From Halomarinibacterium sedimenti (GTDB lineage Bacteria > Bacteroidota > Bacteroidia > Flavobacteriales > Flavobacteriaceae): a DNA stretch of 64,000 bases. The stretch spans positions 310,001 through 374,000 of the forward strand of contig NZ_JAHWDP010000001.1 of assembly GCF_019312585.1 (NCBI RefSeq), written 5' to 3'. This document shows, piece by piece, positions 20,598 to 26,700 of this stretch; positions within the stretch are counted from its first letter, which is position 1; each line of letters starts with the position of its first letter. The position numbers were made by a program, and so were the translations under genes. The notes beneath the pieces were generated by a model. It was given only the letters and a program-made list of their open reading frames with translations. It was not told where the DNA came from and made no database searches.

Positions 20598-20619
20598 GAT
20601 GTTTTAGATTTAAAATTGT

Positions 20620-21264
20620 TTATAAAGTTTTTCTATAATACAAGCCGAAAGATTTCTTTTCTATTGGGTTTGGACCATACTGATCAAAGTCCACTCCAAC
20701 ACCAAGTTGGTGACTATTGAAGGATACTCCTGCACGCAATTGCTCAAAACTTCTTGAATGCTTTTCGAATTTGTCCCATACAGTTAAAAATTGCCCATTA
20801 ATCCAAAGTGATACTTTGTCATTCAACGGTGCATTTATCTGAAACTGAGCAAAGATTTCGGCATATCCAGCATCCATTTTTTCAGAATGAGCAACTGAAG
20901 GAATAAATACAAATAATACTCGTGAATTTTGAAGTGTGAATTTTGCCGACATGCGTCTCGAATAGCCAGCAATGCTGTTGTAATATAAGGATGGTCCAAG
21001 TGCAATACTCTTATTAATATTCCAGAATAGAGTTGGTTGAACTCCTACCTCATCAAAGCCTTGGTTTTCTTTATGGTTAAATTTTTGAAAGAAAGCCAAT
21101 GTATTAATACTTAGAGTCTTTTTCTGATTAATAGTATAGCTTGAGTATGATGTAAAATCTGTTTTATCAAAACCTGAAAACAGTTCGATCTGAGTAAATT
21201 GTGCTTGCAAATAGTTTACAAACCCAATTGTTAAAAATGATGTAATGGTGATTAATTTTTTCAT
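20620..21264 (-). CDS. Outer-membrane beta-barrel-like hypothetical protein
   Basis: Exported protein of 214 residues with a signal peptide (about 1-21, ending LQAQ). The mature sequence consists of alternating amphipathic strands with aromatic girdles and ends in FGLYYRKTL, consistent with an eight- to ten-strand outer-membrane barrel. I do not recognise the family. It lies 53 bases after the Crp/Fnr gene and 22 bases before doxX, so it belongs to the same operon. Confidence 0.65.
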   Translation of the reverse strand: MKKLITITSFLTIGFVNYLQAQFTQIELFSGFDKTDFTSYSSYTINQKKTLSINTLAFFQKFNHKENQGFDEVGVQPTLFWNINKSIALGPSLYYNSIAGYSRRMSAKFTLQNSRVLFVFIPSVAHSEKMDAGYAEIFAQFQINAPLNDKVSLWINGQFLTVWDKFEKHSRSFEQLRAGVSFNSHQLGVGVDFDQYGPNPIEKKSFGLYYRKTL

Positions 21265-21317
21265 GCTTCAAAAATCCGATAGGAACGCATGAAAAAAAAT
21301 GAACTAGTTTAAGACTT

Positions 21318-21911
21318 TTACATTCTATTAACTTTCGAAATAATTTTACTCATAAATTCTGGTGTTATACCAATGTAGCCTGCTAAGTCTTTCTGTGTAA
21401 TTCTATTTACAATTTTTGGATATTTCTTTTTAAACTCGATATATCTTTCTTCAGCAGTTAAGGATATCCCGTGATTGGAACGTCTTATATAGCTTATAAG
21501 TGACCTTTGATATAGTATTCGATAAAACCTTTCAAATTTTGGAATTTCTTGAAAAAGTAAATTATAATTAGCCCTAGAGATACCTAATAATTCTGAATCC
21601 TCAGTAGCTCTAATAAAATAACGTGATGGTTGTTTGGTCATAAAACTAGCCATGTCTCCAGTCCAATAATCCTCTACTGCAAACATGGATATGTGTGGAA
21701 CACCATCTTCATCTAAGGTATAGACCTTTAAGCATCCTTTTGTGATAAAATATTCATATTTAGTAACATCACCAGCCTGCATTAAATAGGCCTTCTTTTT
21801 TACTTTTATTTCCGTTAATAAAGAGAGGTATTTTTGCTTTTCTAGCTCGGTTAAATCAATAAACCTTGCTATATTATTAAGTATTAATATATGTGATTCT
21901 TTATAAATCAA
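21318..21911 (-). CDS. Crp/Fnr-family transcriptional regulator
   Basis: Regulator of 197 residues. The N-terminal cNMP-binding beta-roll covers about 10-115 (KKKAYLMQAGDVTKYEYFITKGCLKVY), and the C-terminal winged helix is short (ITQKDLAGYIGITPEFMSKIISK). It belongs to the flavobacterial subgroup with a trimmed HTH. There is no Fe-S cysteine cluster of the FNR type. Being first in the doxX-reductase-NmrA operon, it is the obvious candidate for its control. Confidence 0.87.
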   Translation of the reverse strand: MIYKESHILILNNIARFIDLTELEKQKYLSLLTEIKVKKKAYLMQAGDVTKYEYFITKGCLKVYTLDEDGVPHISMFAVEDYWTGDMASFMTKQPSRYFIRATEDSELLGISRANYNLLFQEIPKFERFYRILYQRSLISYIRRSNHGISLTAEERYIEFKKKYPKIVNRITQKDLAGYIGITPEFMSKIISKVNRM

Positions 21912-22109
21912 TTCCTTCTAAATATTTATGATTTTAATTTATAAAATAAATATTTAAAAGCAAAGTAGCCCAGCAAAATAATTGAAAATGAGACCTCTAA
22001 CTTCTAATTTGGCAAAGGTCTCTGCTATTAGGAGTTATGTATTTAAATAATAAGTAATAAATAAAACTAAAAATCCTATATGTTTTCATAAGTAGGCTAG
22101 AAATAGCAA

Positions 22110-22877
22110 TTATTTATTAGTATTAATTCTTTCAATTTCATTTATCATTTCTTTTGCCACAATAGCTGAAGAGGGAAGAAACATGGTCGTCACAATTCTC
22201 TTATCAATTACTATATCATGTTTATCTTTCAAATCGGCTTTTGTTTGAAATATTCCTCCGTTAATCCTTAACTGGTCCTCTAGCATTACGGGTAATAATG
22301 TTCCTTCTTTAGCCCAACTTTTGGTAATCTCAGTTGAATTTGGAAAACCTGTCACTTTTTTACCTTTAACCATATAATCACCATTACTAAGCTTAACATT
22401 TGCAAAAGCACCAGGGCCGTGACCACAACCTCCTACTATTCCCTCATTTTCATAAATTTTTGCTATAATAGAAAGTAAACTTCTATTATTGGCAACATCA
22501 AACAATGGTCCATATCCACCTCCAATAAAAACAGCTTTATAATTTTTATAATCTACTAAATCGGGGGTTAATGAATTTTGAACTTCATCATTAAAATTTT
22601 CATACTTTATAGTATAGCTACTTATTCCAATAGGATCCATTGAAAAAGGTACTTTTCCACCTGTTGGTGAAACAAAATCAACTTTATACCCATGAGACAC
22701 AAAAACATGATATGGGGGTGCTACCTCCCAGAGATTGTTTCCTGCAAAGTGCTTTTCTGGGTCGCCCATGTCTTCTAGATTTGAAACAATAATCAATATA
22801 CTTCCTTTTTCAGTTTTGTCATCGGCACATGATATAAAAGTTAATATTACCGATAATGTGAAGAGTAATTTTTTCAT
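22110..22877 (-). CDS. DJ-1/PfpI-family lipoprotein
   Basis: Lipoprotein of 255 residues (lipobox FISC, C17). The DJ-1/PfpI glutamine-amidotransferase-like fold shows the nucleophile elbow VGGCGHGPGAF with C151 and H153, and the GGGYGPLFD loop at 119-127. The N-terminal region with GYKVDFVSPTGG is typical of Hsp31-like chaperone/glyoxalase types. A membrane-anchored periplasmic location is unusual for the family but is known in Bacteroidota. Gaps of about 200 bases lie on both sides, so it appears monocistronic. Confidence 0.85.
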   Translation of the reverse strand: MKKLLFTLSVILTFISCADDKTEKGSILIIVSNLEDMGDPEKHFAGNNLWEVAPPYHVFVSHGYKVDFVSPTGGKVPFSMDPIGISSYTIKYENFNDEVQNSLTPDLVDYKNYKAVFIGGGYGPLFDVANNRSLLSIIAKIYENEGIVGGCGHGPGAFANVKLSNGDYMVKGKKVTGFPNSTEITKSWAKEGTLLPVMLEDQLRINGGIFQTKADLKDKHDIVIDKRIVTTMFLPSSAIVAKEMINEIERINTNK

Positions 22878-22947
22878 TTTACTTGATTGAACTATGTATT
22901 GTAAGACTATAAATAAAAAAAATGTTACAGTTTTTAGTATTAAAATT

Positions 22948-23071
22948 AACGGTTTAGTGTATGAGTAGTAGCGGATTTCTGCTCACAAACCTTTCGGTTT
23001 TAGACTGACCTTTGTTTTATGTTTATACTTCGGTTTTATCACTTAAACCGCTATTACTTATACACCATGTT
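22948..23071 (-). repeat. attC-like imperfect palindrome (124 bases)
   Basis: An 18-pair stem joins 22957-22974 with 23048-23065; its only irregularities are two G-T wobbles. Outer trinucleotides AAC (22948-22950) and GTT (23069-23071) pair too, with unequal spacers of six and three bases between them and the main stem. This makes extrahelical bases of the kind seen in integron attC sites. The 73-base interior contains two copies of TTCGGTTTTA. It starts 15 bases past the stop codon of the PD40 gene, the position of an attC in a gene cassette. I recall similar GTGTATAAGTAATAGCGG repeats scattered in Bacteroidota genomes, but have not checked. Confidence 0.65.
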
Positions 23072-23086
23072 AGCAAATGTTTTTTT

Positions 23087-24010
23087 CTATTTCATATTGA
23101 AAAGTATGTCAGCGTTTACCCAATAAACTTCTCCTTTTTCTACTCCTGCCCATCCTTTTTTTTCAGGGTTATTATATCTTCTGGAATAGATAAAAAACTT
23201 TTCATCTGAAGACATATAAGGACAATAATAACGCCAATTACTTTCATATTTTAACGGTATCTCTTTCGGTTTTGTCCATTCTCCATTTTCATTAAAAGTT
23301 ATTTGAAATTTACCTTGTCCATTAGTAATGGCATACCGTTCATCAGCTGAAACATACGTTATTAGTTCTTTGTTCTTTGTCTTAATATCTACGATAACAG
23401 GTGTTTCAAATTTTTCATCTCCTAAATATTGCGCACGATATGTCTGCATTCCTCCTTTATTATTTGGTCTATTTGAACGAAAATATAAACTACCATCTGC
23501 CGTAACCACAGGATAGGTTTCGAAATATTCAGTGGAAACCAAGAAATCTACTTTGGAGGCTAATTCCCACTTACCATTCACTTTTTCACTCTTATAAATG
23601 TCTGGCGGGATTGTGTAAAGTTCTTCTCGGGTAACATTATTATTATATAATTTAGGGTCAACACCGAGAAAATACATTGCCTTTCCGTCTTTGGTAATAG
23701 TGGGGTCACAGGCAACTGAAAACAAGACACTATCGTCATACATCTTTATTGGCTCAATGTCAGACCATTTACCATTATTTAACTCAGAATGGTGAATAAC
23801 AAAGCTACTGTCCACAATTCTTGAAAAGAACATTTCTGTATGGTCAGAATTAAAAACCACATTAAGTTCGACATTGTCAGTATTAACAATTGTTGGCGCA
23901 AATAATTTAGGGGTTGTAGAAGGAAGTTCTTGGTTGAAATATAAAACTGTATTGTTTTTACAACTAAAAAATGTTATTGTAATTAGGAAAATCAATAAGT
24001 GTCTATTCAT
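23087..24010 (-). CDS. PD40/WD40-like beta-propeller lipoprotein
   Basis: Lipoprotein of 307 residues (lipobox FFSC, C17). Repeats such as TKDGKAMYFLG, TADGSLYFRSNR and SSDEKFFIYSRR are typical PD40 blades, suggesting a six-blade propeller as in TolB-like proteins. No enzyme motif is seen. It is isolated between non-coding regions and appears to be the cargo of a cassette-like unit: inverted 12-mers at 23070-23081 and 24018-24029 border it, and a structured repeat follows the stop. Only about 20 bases separate the upstream border from ATG. Confidence 0.82.
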   Translation of the reverse strand: MNRHLLIFLITITFFSCKNNTVLYFNQELPSTTPKLFAPTIVNTDNVELNVVFNSDHTEMFFSRIVDSSFVIHHSELNNGKWSDIEPIKMYDDSVLFSVACDPTITKDGKAMYFLGVDPKLYNNNVTREELYTIPPDIYKSEKVNGKWELASKVDFLVSTEYFETYPVVTADGSLYFRSNRPNNKGGMQTYRAQYLGDEKFETPVIVDIKTKNKELITYVSADERYAITNGQGKFQITFNENGEWTKPKEIPLKYESNWRYYCPYMSSDEKFFIYSRRYNNPEKKGWAGVEKGEVYWVNADILFNMK

Positions 24011-24017
24011 TATTGTT

Positions 24018-24029
24018 AATATTTGCTAA
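24018..24029. repeat. Upstream inverted 12-mer bordering the PD40 gene
   Basis: AATATTTGCTAA here is the inverted complement (11 of 12 bases) of TTAGCAAATGTT at 23070-23081. If the stretch 22950-24029 were circularised, TTTGCTAAC and GTTAGCAAA would form a perfectly matched pair of core boxes around the hairpin, as in an integron attC. Confidence 0.55.
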
Positions 24030-24055
24030 TTCGTTATATCTTAAGTTTTATCATG

Positions 24056-24108
24056 GTTATCTGGGTCCATTGCCACGGATAACAATAAATTCATATCGTG
24101 TTTATCCG
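24056..24108. other. Competing hairpins in the 305-base gap 24011-24315
   Basis: GTTATC (24056-24061) can pair with GATAAC (24078-24083), while CGGATAA (24076-24082) can pair with TTATCCG (24102-24108). The two stems exclude each other. They could be recombinase core sites or a regulatory leader of the cassette gene. Otherwise the gap from 24011 to 24315 holds no gene that I can see. Confidence 0.35.
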
Positions 24109-24315
24109 GAACCCTTTCTATTTTATTGCAATTATCATAGAACTATTACACCATTCAATAGTTTTATACATACTTGGGTATAAATCAAGGTTAATCCATA
24201 TTTACTATGTCTTAAAGTTATTAAATAAGCCTTAAAATAAGTTTCAAACTTTTAAAATTTATATCAAAAAAGCAAGATAATTTTTTATCTCCTTTCTCAA
24301 AAAATGCAATTCTGG

Positions 24316-24762
24316 TTATATAAAAACAACCATTTGGTTAGCAACATCATAAAAAGGATTCTTGCCAAACTCATCCCTACCAATATTTTTAATGGGAAGT
24401 AGACTCCCTTTAATCAATGATTTAAGCTCAATAATATCTTCTTTTGTTGCCGGTCTATTGTGTTCTGGAGTCAATGCTTTTGATAATAAATTAACCGCTA
24501 AGTTACCCATAGCTGCATTTCCAACCCCTGCGAGGCTCATTTTATCAATTTGTGTCTTTTCTTTTTTTTTGGATTTTACTTTCTTATTCGATTGAATTTT
24601 TTTTGATGGCTCCGAATAACGATTTCTTATATAGTAGGCTTTGGACCTACAACTATTTGAGCAATACTTTTGGGCAAATCTCCTCTTAGGGACATATTCT
24701 CTATGACAATATTCGCATTCGTAGGTATAATTATCCGTCAAATAATCGTTTGTTTTACGCAT
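24316..24762 (-). CDS. Zinc-ribbon hypothetical protein
   Basis: Protein of 148 residues that I cannot assign. The N-terminal quarter has a Cys4 zinc-ribbon pattern (C16-x2-C19, then C34-x3-C38 in CSNSC) followed by a basic stretch, which suggests nucleic-acid binding. The middle is lysine-rich (KKIQSNKKVKSKKKEK) and the C-terminal part has a short hydrophobic helix. It lies 12 bases downstream of a 62-codon gene, and both point away from the tyrosine recombinase gene, so they look like element cargo. Confidence 0.6.
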   Translation of the reverse strand: MRKTNDYLTDNYTYECEYCHREYVPKRRFAQKYCSNSCRSKAYYIRNRYSEPSKKIQSNKKVKSKKKEKTQIDKMSLAGVGNAAMGNLAVNLLSKALTPEHNRPATKEDIIELKSLIKGSLLPIKNIGRDEFGKNPFYDVANQMVVFI

Positions 24763-24774
24763 AATGCTGGGTTT

Positions 24775-24963
24775 TTAAGTTTTAATATTAAATACTTGTT
24801 TAAGAATGTAGGCATCGGCTTCACCTCTTGTGATGAGCTTGGCCCTTAAAACTGAAGAAGCTTTTTTCTCTTTTAAAATATCCTTATCCAACATTGCATA
24901 TAGTTTTTTCAGCTCTTCCGCAGGAAGTGCCTTAGCTACACTATATACAATGTTCGCATTCAA
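24775..24963 (-). CDS. Small hypothetical protein near the recombinase
   Basis: A 62-residue helical protein (SVAKALPAEELKKLYAMLDKD then RAKLITRGEADAYILKQVF). It has no motif that I recognise. The size and position beside a tyrosine recombinase would suit an excisionase or an accessory factor, but the sequence does not prove this. It is 12 bases from the zinc-ribbon gene and probably co-transcribed with it. Base composition is like its neighbours. Confidence 0.5.
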   Translation of the reverse strand: MNANIVYSVAKALPAEELKKLYAMLDKDILKEKKASSVLRAKLITRGEADAYILKQVFNIKT

Positions 24964-25098
24964 TTGGTTGCTTTACTTTTCAGAATTAATCTTTACAAGA
25001 TTAATAATCCTTAAAATTTTAGTGGAGAGAATGGCTAGTCTTGGCCGGACTTTTCCGGAAAAAAATGGTTATGTCTGGACTTTGATGGACTTGTCCTC

Positions 25099-25150
25099 TC
25101 TTTTCCACTCTTTTCCACTCTTTTCCACTCTTTTCCCTTCTTTTCCCTTC
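25099..25150. repeat. Decamer tandem repeat in the 334-base gap 24964-25297
   Basis: About five units of ten bases: CTCTTTTCCA-type units at 25099-25130, then two TTTTCCCTTC units. The decamer period equals about one DNA helical turn. Just upstream (25041-25075) a related GCCGGACTTTTCCGG inverted motif occurs, and GGAAATTGCGGGAAATTG follows at 25168-25184. The gap shows no intact gene. It could hold recombinase arm-type sites or a bent-DNA region. Confidence 0.65.
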
Positions 25151-25297
25151 TTTGCAGGACATTGAAGGAAATTGCGGGAAATTGAAGACCTATGAAAGGC
25201 ATTACTTTGACCAGTAAAATATTTAGGCTAGTTCAGGGGTCTTAAATAAATTTAGCTTAAAAGCAATAATCCTATGGATGAATTCTAATTATAGAGG

Positions 25298-26572
25298 CTA
25301 TGAAAAATATTCTGAATAATCCTCGGGTAAGGCAGCATCTATATCCCTAAGATATTTTTCAAGTGCTTGCATACTAGAATGCCCTGTTATGAGCATCAAT
25401 TTACTTTTTACTTCAAACGGAGTAAGCTCTACAGCCATTTCTTTATAAAGTTTAGTAATAAATGTATGTCTAAAGGAGTAAAGGCCATACTCTTTACCTA
25501 AATCGAAATGGTTCTTTACCACCGTTCTAAATCGCTTTGAAAAATAATCCCTTCTATTGATTTCCGTGGCATTCCATTCCCCACCTATCTGTGTTGGAGT
25601 AAATAAAAAATGGTCTTGTTCTAAACTTGTAAGATTTGGGATGGATTCAAGCATAATTTCAGGAATTATCTTGATTTTGACAGGTTTATTTTTAGCCCTA
25701 ATATAAATACGTCTTTCCATAACATCAACATCTTTTACTTTCAACCTACAGACTTCAATAGGCCTTAAAAAATTATAGGAAATAAACTGTATGAATAATA
25801 ATAAAATAGGATCATTATCCTTTAAAAAGGAATAGATAGATTCTTGCTGTTGATTAGTATAGGTCTTATTCCTCTCAGGAGTAGCCTTTAAGACATTTAT
25901 GGAATGAATAAAATTGACGGGGATAATTTCGTTATCAACTAAAACCTGAAATAAACTTCCTAATTCAGTACGGGTATTATTTCGTGTCCTAGGACTTGTA
26001 CGAGCCAATACTTCATTTAGATATTCAACTATCAATTTCTTAGTAACCATGTCTATGGTTGGGTTCTTGGGAAGTTTTTCGTTTAACCATTTTTCAAGTT
26101 TTTTGAGTTTACTTCTATAATTGGTAAAAGAACTTACCGAAACCACGTTTTTTTTTATGTCTAATATTTTTTCAAATGATTCTTTTATTGTGGTGTTATT
26201 TATCCTAGAATCTCCTAAAGATTCTAAAATTTTGGGGTTTTCAAATTTAGGAATCAATCGATCGGTGTTATCCTCATAGGGATTAAACCCTTTTTTTAAA
26301 AAATCTGATAAGCTCTTGCGATACATAGAAAGAATTTCCAGACGTTCCCCTTTGGTATGGTAATGATTTGCACCCCCATAGATTGGAGTTTGACGTTCCA
26401 ACTTACCTGTTGATGGGTTTCTAAAAGAAAAATAGACATACCACCTTTTGCTAAGGTCACCCCCAGCATCAAATATTTTAGGTTCAGAATATTGCTTGCG
26501 TTTGGTCAAATCGTATGCGCTACCGTATGCGTTAGCGTATTCAAATGTAAGAAAATCCGTAAATTGAGACAT
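25298..26572 (-). CDS. Tyrosine-type site-specific recombinase (integrase)
   Basis: Integrase of 424 residues. An N-terminal part of about 120 residues unlike the simple SAM-like core precedes a core-binding domain (about 125-220) and the catalytic domain. Catalytic positions are visible: R270 with E273 (FLRPIEVCRLK), a Lys in RAKNKPVKIK, R368 in YSFRHT (the usual first His of the HxxR box is Tyr), H398 in TGHSS and the nucleophile Y407 in EKYL. It belongs to the Bacteroidota phage-type/orphan integrases. It starts 55 bases from an initiator tRNA gene, which was probably the integration target. Confidence 0.88.
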   Translation of the reverse strand: MSQFTDFLTFEYANAYGSAYDLTKRKQYSEPKIFDAGGDLSKRWYVYFSFRNPSTGKLERQTPIYGGANHYHTKGERLEILSMYRKSLSDFLKKGFNPYEDNTDRLIPKFENPKILESLGDSRINNTTIKESFEKILDIKKNVVSVSSFTNYRSKLKKLEKWLNEKLPKNPTIDMVTKKLIVEYLNEVLARTSPRTRNNTRTELGSLFQVLVDNEIIPVNFIHSINVLKATPERNKTYTNQQQESIYSFLKDNDPILLLFIQFISYNFLRPIEVCRLKVKDVDVMERRIYIRAKNKPVKIKIIPEIMLESIPNLTSLEQDHFLFTPTQIGGEWNATEINRRDYFSKRFRTVVKNHFDLGKEYGLYSFRHTFITKLYKEMAVELTPFEVKSKLMLITGHSSMQALEKYLRDIDAALPEDYSEYFS

Positions 26573-26576
26573 AAAA

Positions 26577-26606
26577 AAAGCGGTTTAGCTTGCGCTAAAC
26601 CGCTTT
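26577..26606 (-). terminator. Terminator of the tRNA-fMet gene
   Basis: A perfect hairpin, AAAGCGGTTTAGC and GCTAAACCGCTTT around a four-base loop, is followed on the minus strand by a run of T. It ends immediately before the recombinase ATG, so it also insulates that gene from tRNA transcription. Confidence 0.85.
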
Positions 26607-26627
26607 ATCACTTGACTTGTGAATTAG

Positions 26628-26700
<73 letters not shown>

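What the first reader, a model, noticed from the sequence alone, without database searches (positions are those of the whole stretch)
22948..24029. Single-gene unit with integron-cassette architecture but no integron integrase in view
One PD40 lipoprotein gene is bounded exactly like a gene cassette. The ATG lies about 20 bases after TTAGCAAAT, and about 5 bases past the stop begins ATTTGCTAAC, followed by a 124-base hairpin with an 18-pair stem, AAC/GTT outer boxes and unequal spacers (extrahelical bases). If 22950-24029 were a circle, the flanks would join as TTTGCTAAC...GTTAGCAAA, a matched pair of attC-like core boxes. The nearby tyrosine recombinase at 25298 lacks the visible integron-specific insert as far as I can judge, so either a remote integrase or this recombinase could be the mover. 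I recall related stems scattered in Bacteroidota genomes, which suggests a widespread cassette-like mobility system.
Basis: partly seen in the sequence, partly recalled or inferred. Interest (0 to 1): 0.66.

Follow-up and report, generated by a model that had tools for sequence, protein, structure and literature searches.

The report
Orphan cassette of Bacteroidota integron-like system
The gene in the window looks like a movable gene cassette with its own hairpin recombination site, parked at an integration site of an integron-like gene-capture system that appears common in Bacteroidota and whose recombinase lacks the hallmark of known integron integrases.

Summary
In detail: window 22950-24029 (minus strand) is a one-gene cassette ending in a 124-base attC-like hairpin. 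The hairpin family (covariance model R1) occurs in 171 of 199 genomes sampled from the same family and 137 of 395 from the phylum, in the stretches examined often as dense one-direction arrays. A hairpin's 5' box complements the 3' box of its upstream neighbour at all five variable bases in 81% of 288 pairs, against 1.7-4.7% in controls. A 704-base cassette recurs at 99.7% identity in two genera, identity ending at G|TT.

No canonical integron integrase was found in those 199 genomes. Arrays instead follow a Xer/IntI-like tyrosine recombinase without the IntI insert (58-63 against 100-101 residues); after type A of it lies an attI-like core (31 of 36 loci; 0 of 36 before it).

The window cassette sits directly at such an attI-like site (leave-one-out E 3e-7), but no cassette recombinase was recognised in its genome. 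The recombinase at 25298 lies at a tRNA-Met island edge and is an unlikely mover. Recombination is inferred, not shown. Nine paper searches listed no description of this system.

The parts
22950..24029 (-). Gene cassette, 1080 bases; inferred crossover points G|TT at 22950/22949 and A|TT at 24030/24029
   Evidence: R'' box CATTTGCTAAC and the first nine cassette bases TTAGCAAAT match with 0 mismatches, 950 bases apart; same kind of boundaries as in family arrays
23087..24010 (-). Cassette gene: 307-aa protein with a PD40 match, lipoprotein-like start
   Evidence: Pfam PF07676 29.4 bits, cut-off 20.9; at E <= 1e-20 found in 1 of 60 related genomes, its own
22948..23071 (-). attC-like hairpin, AAC to GTT, 124 bases
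   Evidence: R1 match 22939-23079, 150.1 bits, E 1.4e-29; the window copy is one of the 26 rows R1 was built from
22957..22974 (-). 3' arm of the hairpin stem
   Evidence: fold; structure counted on A1
23048..23065 (-). 5' arm of the hairpin stem
   Evidence: fold; structure counted on A1
23069..23079 (-). R''-like box CATTTGCTAAC
22941..22950 (-). R'-like box GTTAATTTTA; from TT onwards it belongs to the downstream flank
24028..24039 (-). attI-like core ATATAACGAA|TT
   Evidence: only match of ATATAACRARTT in the window, 0.10 expected by chance
24030..24148 (-). attI-like element upstream of the cassette
   Evidence: leave-one-out profile match 24115-24030, E 3.1e-7, the only match up to E 1 in the 64 kb window; with the window among the training rows 24148-24028

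Best explanation
The unit is an orphan cassette of a Bacteroidota integron-like system. In systems with a recombinase of type A the order is: an insert-less Xer/IntI-like tyrosine recombinase, an attI-like site (by eye TTATCC ... ATATAACNAG|TT), then cassettes, each usually one gene plus a hairpin of about 124 bases. Inferred mechanism: the recombinase binds the folded non-gene strand of the hairpin, cuts at G|TT and joins a cassette circle to attI, so that the circle's matched core boxes (TTTGCTAAC / GTTAGCAAA) are split across the two ends of the integrated unit. Shown by sequence: unit boundaries, core-box exchange, spread between genera, strand asymmetry, and linkage of recombinase, attI and array. 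Inferred: catalysis, single-strand substrate, and that the window cassette was placed by a recombinase since lost from this genome or acting from elsewhere.
For: R''/R' complementarity between neighbours at all five variable bases 81% (n=288) against 4.7% own (n=344), 1.7% downstream (n=288), 3.5% two upstream (n=255) and 2.2% random. All 344 boxed hairpins lie on one strand within their locus. Of 284 units, 252 have the longest ORF on the hairpin's strand, 6 opposite, 26 no ORF of 50 aa. A 704-base cassette is 99.7% identical in two genera, with 100-base flanks at 0.53-0.57 where random is 0.54. Stem: covariation score 0.207 against 0.069 in shuffles and at most 0.060 when slid; 52 cells changed on both sides against 17.8. 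Two stem positions are not standard pairs on the gene strand in 25 and 26 of 26 rows, while 23 of 26 rows have two or three wobbles on the other strand; the non-gene strand is more stable in 321 of 340 stems, 17 the other way. Linkage: 18 of 30 type A loci have a hairpin within about 1.5 kb, each downstream and on the same strand. Presence: strong recombinase match in 121 of 171 hairpin-positive and 3 of 28 hairpin-negative genomes (counted by me; Fisher p 1.6e-9). attI core after the recombinase in 31 of 36 loci, before it in 0 of 36. A profile of nine such sites of this genome matches, among the other genomes' loci held, four places, each just after a type A recombinase (L172, L139, L170, L118).
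Against: No excision, circle or insertion was observed. No cassette recombinase was recognised in this genome, so how this cassette moved is open. 12 of 30 type A loci show no R1 hairpin in their short, sometimes truncated flanks. Three genomes have the recombinase but no R1 hairpin. R1 also matches genomes that hold classical IntI (8 of 47 tested), so the hairpin family alone does not tell the recombinase. Only 6 of the own genome's 11 R1 matches show the attI-like flank; for the other five no convincing cassette start was found. The base before TT in the window is A, not G. The further-pair-types measure of the stem is not above shuffles (15 against 16.4). Some related units between genera differ in the hairpin end, and one such pair is also alike (0.87) upstream of the unit. 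A shared attI for type B was seen in few loci.
Confidence: 0.82

Rival explanations
1. Ordinary integron remnant: the cassettes are moved by a classical IntI, and the window is a single attC lacking an integrase.
For: attC-like anatomy and G|TT crossover; classical IntI occurs in 8 of 47 hairpin-positive genomes of other families, chosen by me from 106; an older survey reports intI in the Bacteroidetes/Chlorobi group (PMC2426708, passages).
Against: 0 of 199 family genomes have IntI over cut-off, although the same search rings elsewhere. Eight array-linked recombinases score 186-210 bits against a cut-off of 265, two true IntI 486 and 465. Core boxes fit GTTRBV in 330 of 344 and GTTRRRY in 26.
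Confidence: 0.09
2. The hairpins are terminators, REP-like repeats or structured RNAs and not recombination sites.
For: They sit just after genes and fold well.
Against: Neighbour-specific box complementarity, unit boundaries of near-identical copies, linkage to recombinase and attI. No Rfam family reached its gathering score in 22800-24200.
Confidence: 0.03
3. The tyrosine recombinase at 25298-26572, or the host's XerC/XerD-like proteins, move the cassette.
For: The first is adjacent; two Xer-like proteins are present (named by eye) and could act on hairpins.
Against: P0002 is far from the cassette recombinases (43 bits to NF040815) and lies beside tRNA-Met 26627-26700, where synteny with the congener stops. 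Other cassettes of the genome are far away. Array presence goes with the insert-less recombinase.
Confidence: 0.06

Closest known systems
Classical integron (IntI, attI, attC cassettes)
   Same: Recombinase plus attI plus same-direction one-gene cassettes; hairpin sites with AAC/GTT boxes; crossover G|TT; the non-gene strand folds better
   Different: Recombinase lacks the IntI insert and, in one tree, lies outside the group of six IntI-type rows; core GTTRBV, not GTTRRRY; attI core ATATAACNAG|TT; the type A recombinase reads toward the array
CALIN, or single attC lacking an integrase
   Same: Cassette without a recognised integrase in the genome
   Different: The 5' side is an attI-like site of which nine copies were seen in this genome, plus two weaker profile matches
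XerA / NF040815 recombinases
   Same: Best family by sequence (196-243 bits, cut-off 220); solved XerA is the top Foldseek hit by E-value, IntI4 next
   Different: About 90 extra N-terminal residues in type A, and linkage to cassette arrays
Vibrio superintegron repeats (VCR; recalled)
   Same: Repeat of similar length in large chromosomal arrays
   Different: Recombinase, core consensus and phylum; no direct comparison was made here

Membership tests
Classical integron | IntI with the additional domain near patch III | tested here: not met
   KDR to HxLRH distance 58 in 22 of 22 type A, 58-63 in 13 of 13 type B, 100-101 in 6 of 6 IntI-type rows; 66 in the own XerD-like protein. TIGR02249 below cut-off in 8 of 8 cassette recombinases scanned
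Classical integron | attC boxes RYYYAAC / GTTRRRY | tested here: not met
   RYYYAAC 31 of 344, GTTRRRY 26 of 344; AAC and GTT themselves were required for counting, 344 of 367
Classical integron | Crossover G|TT with boxes exchanged between neighbouring cassettes | tested here: met
   81% of 288 neighbours; identity ending at G|TT in near-identical units
Classical integron | Stem-loop site favoured on the non-gene strand | tested here: met
   321 of 340 stems by predicted energy; 130 of 344 random 124-mers favour that strand; covariation
Classical integron | attI beside the integrase | tested here: met
   Type A: 31 of 36 loci; type B only in part
Classical integron | Same-direction one-gene cassettes | tested here: met
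   Longest ORF: 252 same, 6 opposite, 26 none, of 284 units
Classical integron | Recombination of single-stranded attC by the integrase | not testable with these tools
   needs a bench assay
Classical integron | Cassette promoter Pc at attI | tested here: inconclusive
   TATATTT-like motifs are visible before many attI cores but no control was run
Single attC lacking integrase | attC without an integrase in the genome | tested here: met
   No IntI over cut-off; best match of P0005 in the genome E 2.3e-33, place not printed, like the weak matches of other genomes without a strong one; R1 matches: 11 up to E 1
XerA / NF040815 | Score over the curated cut-off of 220 | tested here: inconclusive
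   Over in 3 of 8 cassette recombinases scanned (L176, L179, L193), under in 5

The most novel reading that the evidence does not exclude
Bacteroidota carry a second, separately evolved kind of integron: an insert-less Xer-derived recombinase took up folded-hairpin cassette recombination independently of IntI, with its own core code (GTTRBV) and its own attI. Genomes that lost the recombinase keep dispersed attI-cassette units such as the one in the window.
Probability: 0.45. Interest if true: 0.93.

Novelty: new variant of a known kind. Interest (0 to 1): 0.85.

Why it matters
A survey with the standard tool reports integrons as very rare in Bacteroidetes (one complete integron in Salinibacter, others in Chlorobi and Ignavibacteriae; PMC9024848, passages), and the IntI insertion is called essential for integron function (PMC8138268, passages). 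If these arrays work without it, a large environmental phylum holds an overlooked gene-capture system, standard searches for IntI miss it, and the question of what lets a recombinase use folded single-strand sites becomes testable by comparing two natural solutions.

Tried and rejected
Rfam gave no family at its gathering score (two weak matches to eukaryotic families). The plasmid collection gave two records with distant hairpins. The cassette gene was absent at E <= 1e-20 from 59 of 60 related genomes, so its origin was not traced. An empty site could not be sought: nothing in the congener G001 (79% complete) matches window 20600-26620 except another hairpin copy. The pattern ATATAACRAGTTRBVNNYA was too strict: it missed sites already known in the own genome and found three more; in the other genomes of that call most had no match, and the control pattern gave 3 matches in 40 genomes against 8. 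A common type B attI was not found: an AAACAC palindrome stands right after the recombinase in 2 of 14 loci, plus one first-cassette flank, L083. Terminator or RNA, the adjacent recombinase and classical IntI were considered and rejected (see rivals). The predicted fold (mean pLDDT 84.8, pTM 0.55) matches XerA and IntI4 over residues 93-371; the N-terminal 90 residues were not searched alone.

Counting notes. Searches found 407 matches, of which 402 were aligned (one search aligned 150 of 155); 367 stayed after overlapping, mostly opposite-strand, copies were dropped, and 344 after requiring AAC and GTT and room at the locus ends. Three pairs of fetched stretches overlap by 2 kb, so a few hairpins and units count twice; 329 cores are distinct. 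The 40 stretches were chosen because they hold strong hairpins, so array density is no random sample. Numbers of hairpins per genome are lower bounds (16 candidates scored, 8). Units are those of 200-3500 bases between neighbouring hairpins. The type A and B labels are mine, by score with P0005; type B is not one group in the tree. The pattern was written after some of the loci had been seen.

Full report
What is in the window. The gene 23087-24010 (-) encodes a 307-aa protein with a PD40 match and a lipoprotein-like start. On its strand the order is: attI-like element 24148-24030, crossover, TTAGCAAAT, the ATG 19 bases into the unit, the gene, then CATTTGCTAAC and a 124-base hairpin ending ACCG|TTAATTTT. 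One stem arm searched with 3 mismatches finds only itself and the other arm. On the plus strand 18 of 18 stem positions pair, two of them as T.G wobbles; the gene strand has two A.C mismatches there.

A family of sites. Related DNA was found in 23 of 40 related genomes, the own one included. Twenty-six copies gave an alignment whose stem shows compensatory change: 10 pairs with change on both sides (7.2 in shuffles, 9 of 500 as high) and a covariation score of 0.207 against 0.069; the measure of further pair types is not raised. The covariance model R1 matches 171 of 199 genomes of the family, one per genus, at E <= 0.001, and 137 of 395 of the phylum at E <= 1e-4. In 80 named loci fetched by the recombinase, hits at E <= 0.001 fall in 17, all from Bacteroidota, and in none of the loci from other phyla.

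Cassettes. Forty stretches of up to 20 kb were fetched around strong hits. With the window they hold dense runs of hairpins, median spacing 899 bases (303 gaps), all on one strand within a locus, 344 of 344. The decisive test is the box exchange: revcomp(R'') of a hairpin equals R' of its upstream neighbour at all five variable bases in 81% of 288 pairs, but 4.7% for its own R', 1.7% for the downstream neighbour, 3.5% for two upstream and 2.2% at random. This is what cassette insertion at G|TT leaves behind. Of 284 units, 252 carry the longest ORF in the hairpin's direction. Thirty-eight full-length unit pairs of at least 70% identity lie at different places, most within one genome. One is 704 bases at 99.7% between two genera whose recombinases share 53% identity; outside the unit identity falls to 0.53-0.57, the random mean being 0.54. 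Not every pair is so clean: two pairs between genera differ in the hairpin end (last 25 bases 0.62), one of them also alike (0.87) upstream of the unit.

The recombinase. No canonical integron integrase passes the cut-off in 199 family genomes; the same search finds 8 of 47 hairpin-positive genomes in other families of the phylum, so the negative is meaningful, and R1 hairpins are not exclusive to genomes without IntI. At two array ends that I read lies instead a recombinase of 390-401 aa. In 30 type A loci with about 1.5 kb flanks, 18 show a hairpin, each downstream and on the same strand. Among the 17 named loci with hairpins, 15 have all hits downstream and on the same strand, L192 is mixed and L232 opposite. 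Eight such recombinases score 186-210 bits with the integron integrase model (cut-off 265), while two true IntI score 486 and 465. Against the solved IntI4 the match breaks between IntI4 residues 181 and 244. The distance from the KDR motif to HxLRH is 58 residues in 22 of 22 type A and 58-63 in 13 of 13 type B rows, against 100-101 in six IntI-type rows; other Xer-like rows have 58-66. In the tree type A is one group (100/100) and the six IntI-type rows group together (100/99) apart from it; deeper forks are only moderately supported, the root is at the midpoint, and type B is not one group. The fold model resembles XerA and IntI4. R229, K254, H318, R321, H344 and Y353 of P0005 are invariant in the 32 rows; that these are the catalytic set is established knowledge, not tested.

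attI. In the 360 bases around and after the end of the type A recombinase, the pattern NTATAA[ACT]N[ACG][ACG]TTRBV occurs in 31 of 36 loci; in the 360 bases before the gene it occurs in 0 of 36 (three further loci were too short). The pattern was written after seeing some of these loci, so the 31 is partly by construction; the contrast with upstream is not.

The own genome. R1 finds 11 matches up to E 1, three of them strong. No cassette recombinase is recognised. Six units, the window's among them, start at a 5' flank ATATAACRAG or ATATAACGAA; the window and L155 match their R'' exactly over nine bases, the other four with one mismatch, in one of them inside the TT. For the other five R1 matches no convincing start was found. 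Three further flanks of this kind were found by pattern. A profile from the nine matches, among the loci held from other genomes, four places, each directly after a type A recombinase; many of those loci had been fetched for the recombinase, so they are no random sample. Trained without the window, it finds one place in the 64 kb, 24115-24030, E 3e-7. The genome thus holds dispersed attI-like sites, several with a cassette and no recombinase; how they were dispersed is unknown.

The neighbour recombinase. P0002 (25298-26572) lies beside tRNA-Met 26627-26700. In the congener G001 similarity starts at the tRNA and runs to the right; the 3.3 kb held to the left do not match the window, and elsewhere in G001 only another hairpin copy does. 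P0002 is best read as the integrase of an island at that tRNA (inference).

Known or new. PMC9024848 (passages) reports 93% of complete integrons in Gammaproteobacteria and, in Bacteroidetes proper, one in Salinibacter; PMC2426708 (passages) reports intI in the Bacteroidetes/Chlorobi group. PMC9668308 (passages) names the IntI-specific domain as a defining character. PMC8138268 (passages) calls the insertion not fully conserved in its subgroup but essential. PMC8352920 (passages) lists 11 taxon models of attC, none for Bacteroidota. Nine searches of open papers (listings only) showed no description of such a system; most subscription papers and preprints are outside that library. NCBI's family name for XerA-like proteins, site-specific tyrosine recombinase/integron integrase, already hints at the resemblance. 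VCR, attG and the promoter motif of Bacteroidota are recalled and come from no call.

Verdict. The finding is real and larger than stated: the window holds an orphan attI-cassette unit of an integron-like system with an insert-less recombinase. Activity remains to be shown.

Noticed in passing
window 25298-26572 and 26627-26700: Tyrosine recombinase next to tRNA-Met, where synteny with the congener G001 stops: likely a tRNA-targeting genomic island whose other end was not located.
   Followed up: partly
window 25080-25159: Tandem 10-base repeat (ctcttttcca type) between the island integrase and the zinc-finger-like gene 24316-24762.
   Followed up: no
L151 and L156 (own genome C9 and C1): Upstream of the attI-like site both have a similar pair of genes (163 aa, then about 120-aa helix-turn-helix-like protein with a coiled tail); several other sites keep a similar tail end only. 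A repeated module may carry attI around.
   Followed up: partly
G257:C33, G265:C44, G387:C17: Frames of 282-335 aa with the split, insert-less match to TIGR02249 beside R1 hairpins but on the opposite strand: another layout in other Bacteroidota families.
   Followed up: no
G006, G009, G078: Carry a strong P0005 match but no R1 hairpin: possibly a different hairpin family.
   Followed up: no
type B recombinases: Many matches are reported with one stop inside the aligned stretch; decay, alignment past the true stop, or a real feature is not decided.
   Followed up: no
L188, L215 (Undinarchaeales MAG), L197, L204 (Spirochaetota MAGs): Near full-length relatives of the recombinase at 33-35% identity outside Bacteroidota; binning errors not excluded.
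   Followed up: no
L009 (Persicobacter psychrovividus plasmid pPP2), L010 (Flammeovirga kamogawensis plasmid p1): Hairpins of this family on large plasmids, five places in the first; the same protein accession appears twice there, suggesting a duplicated cassette.
   Followed up: partly
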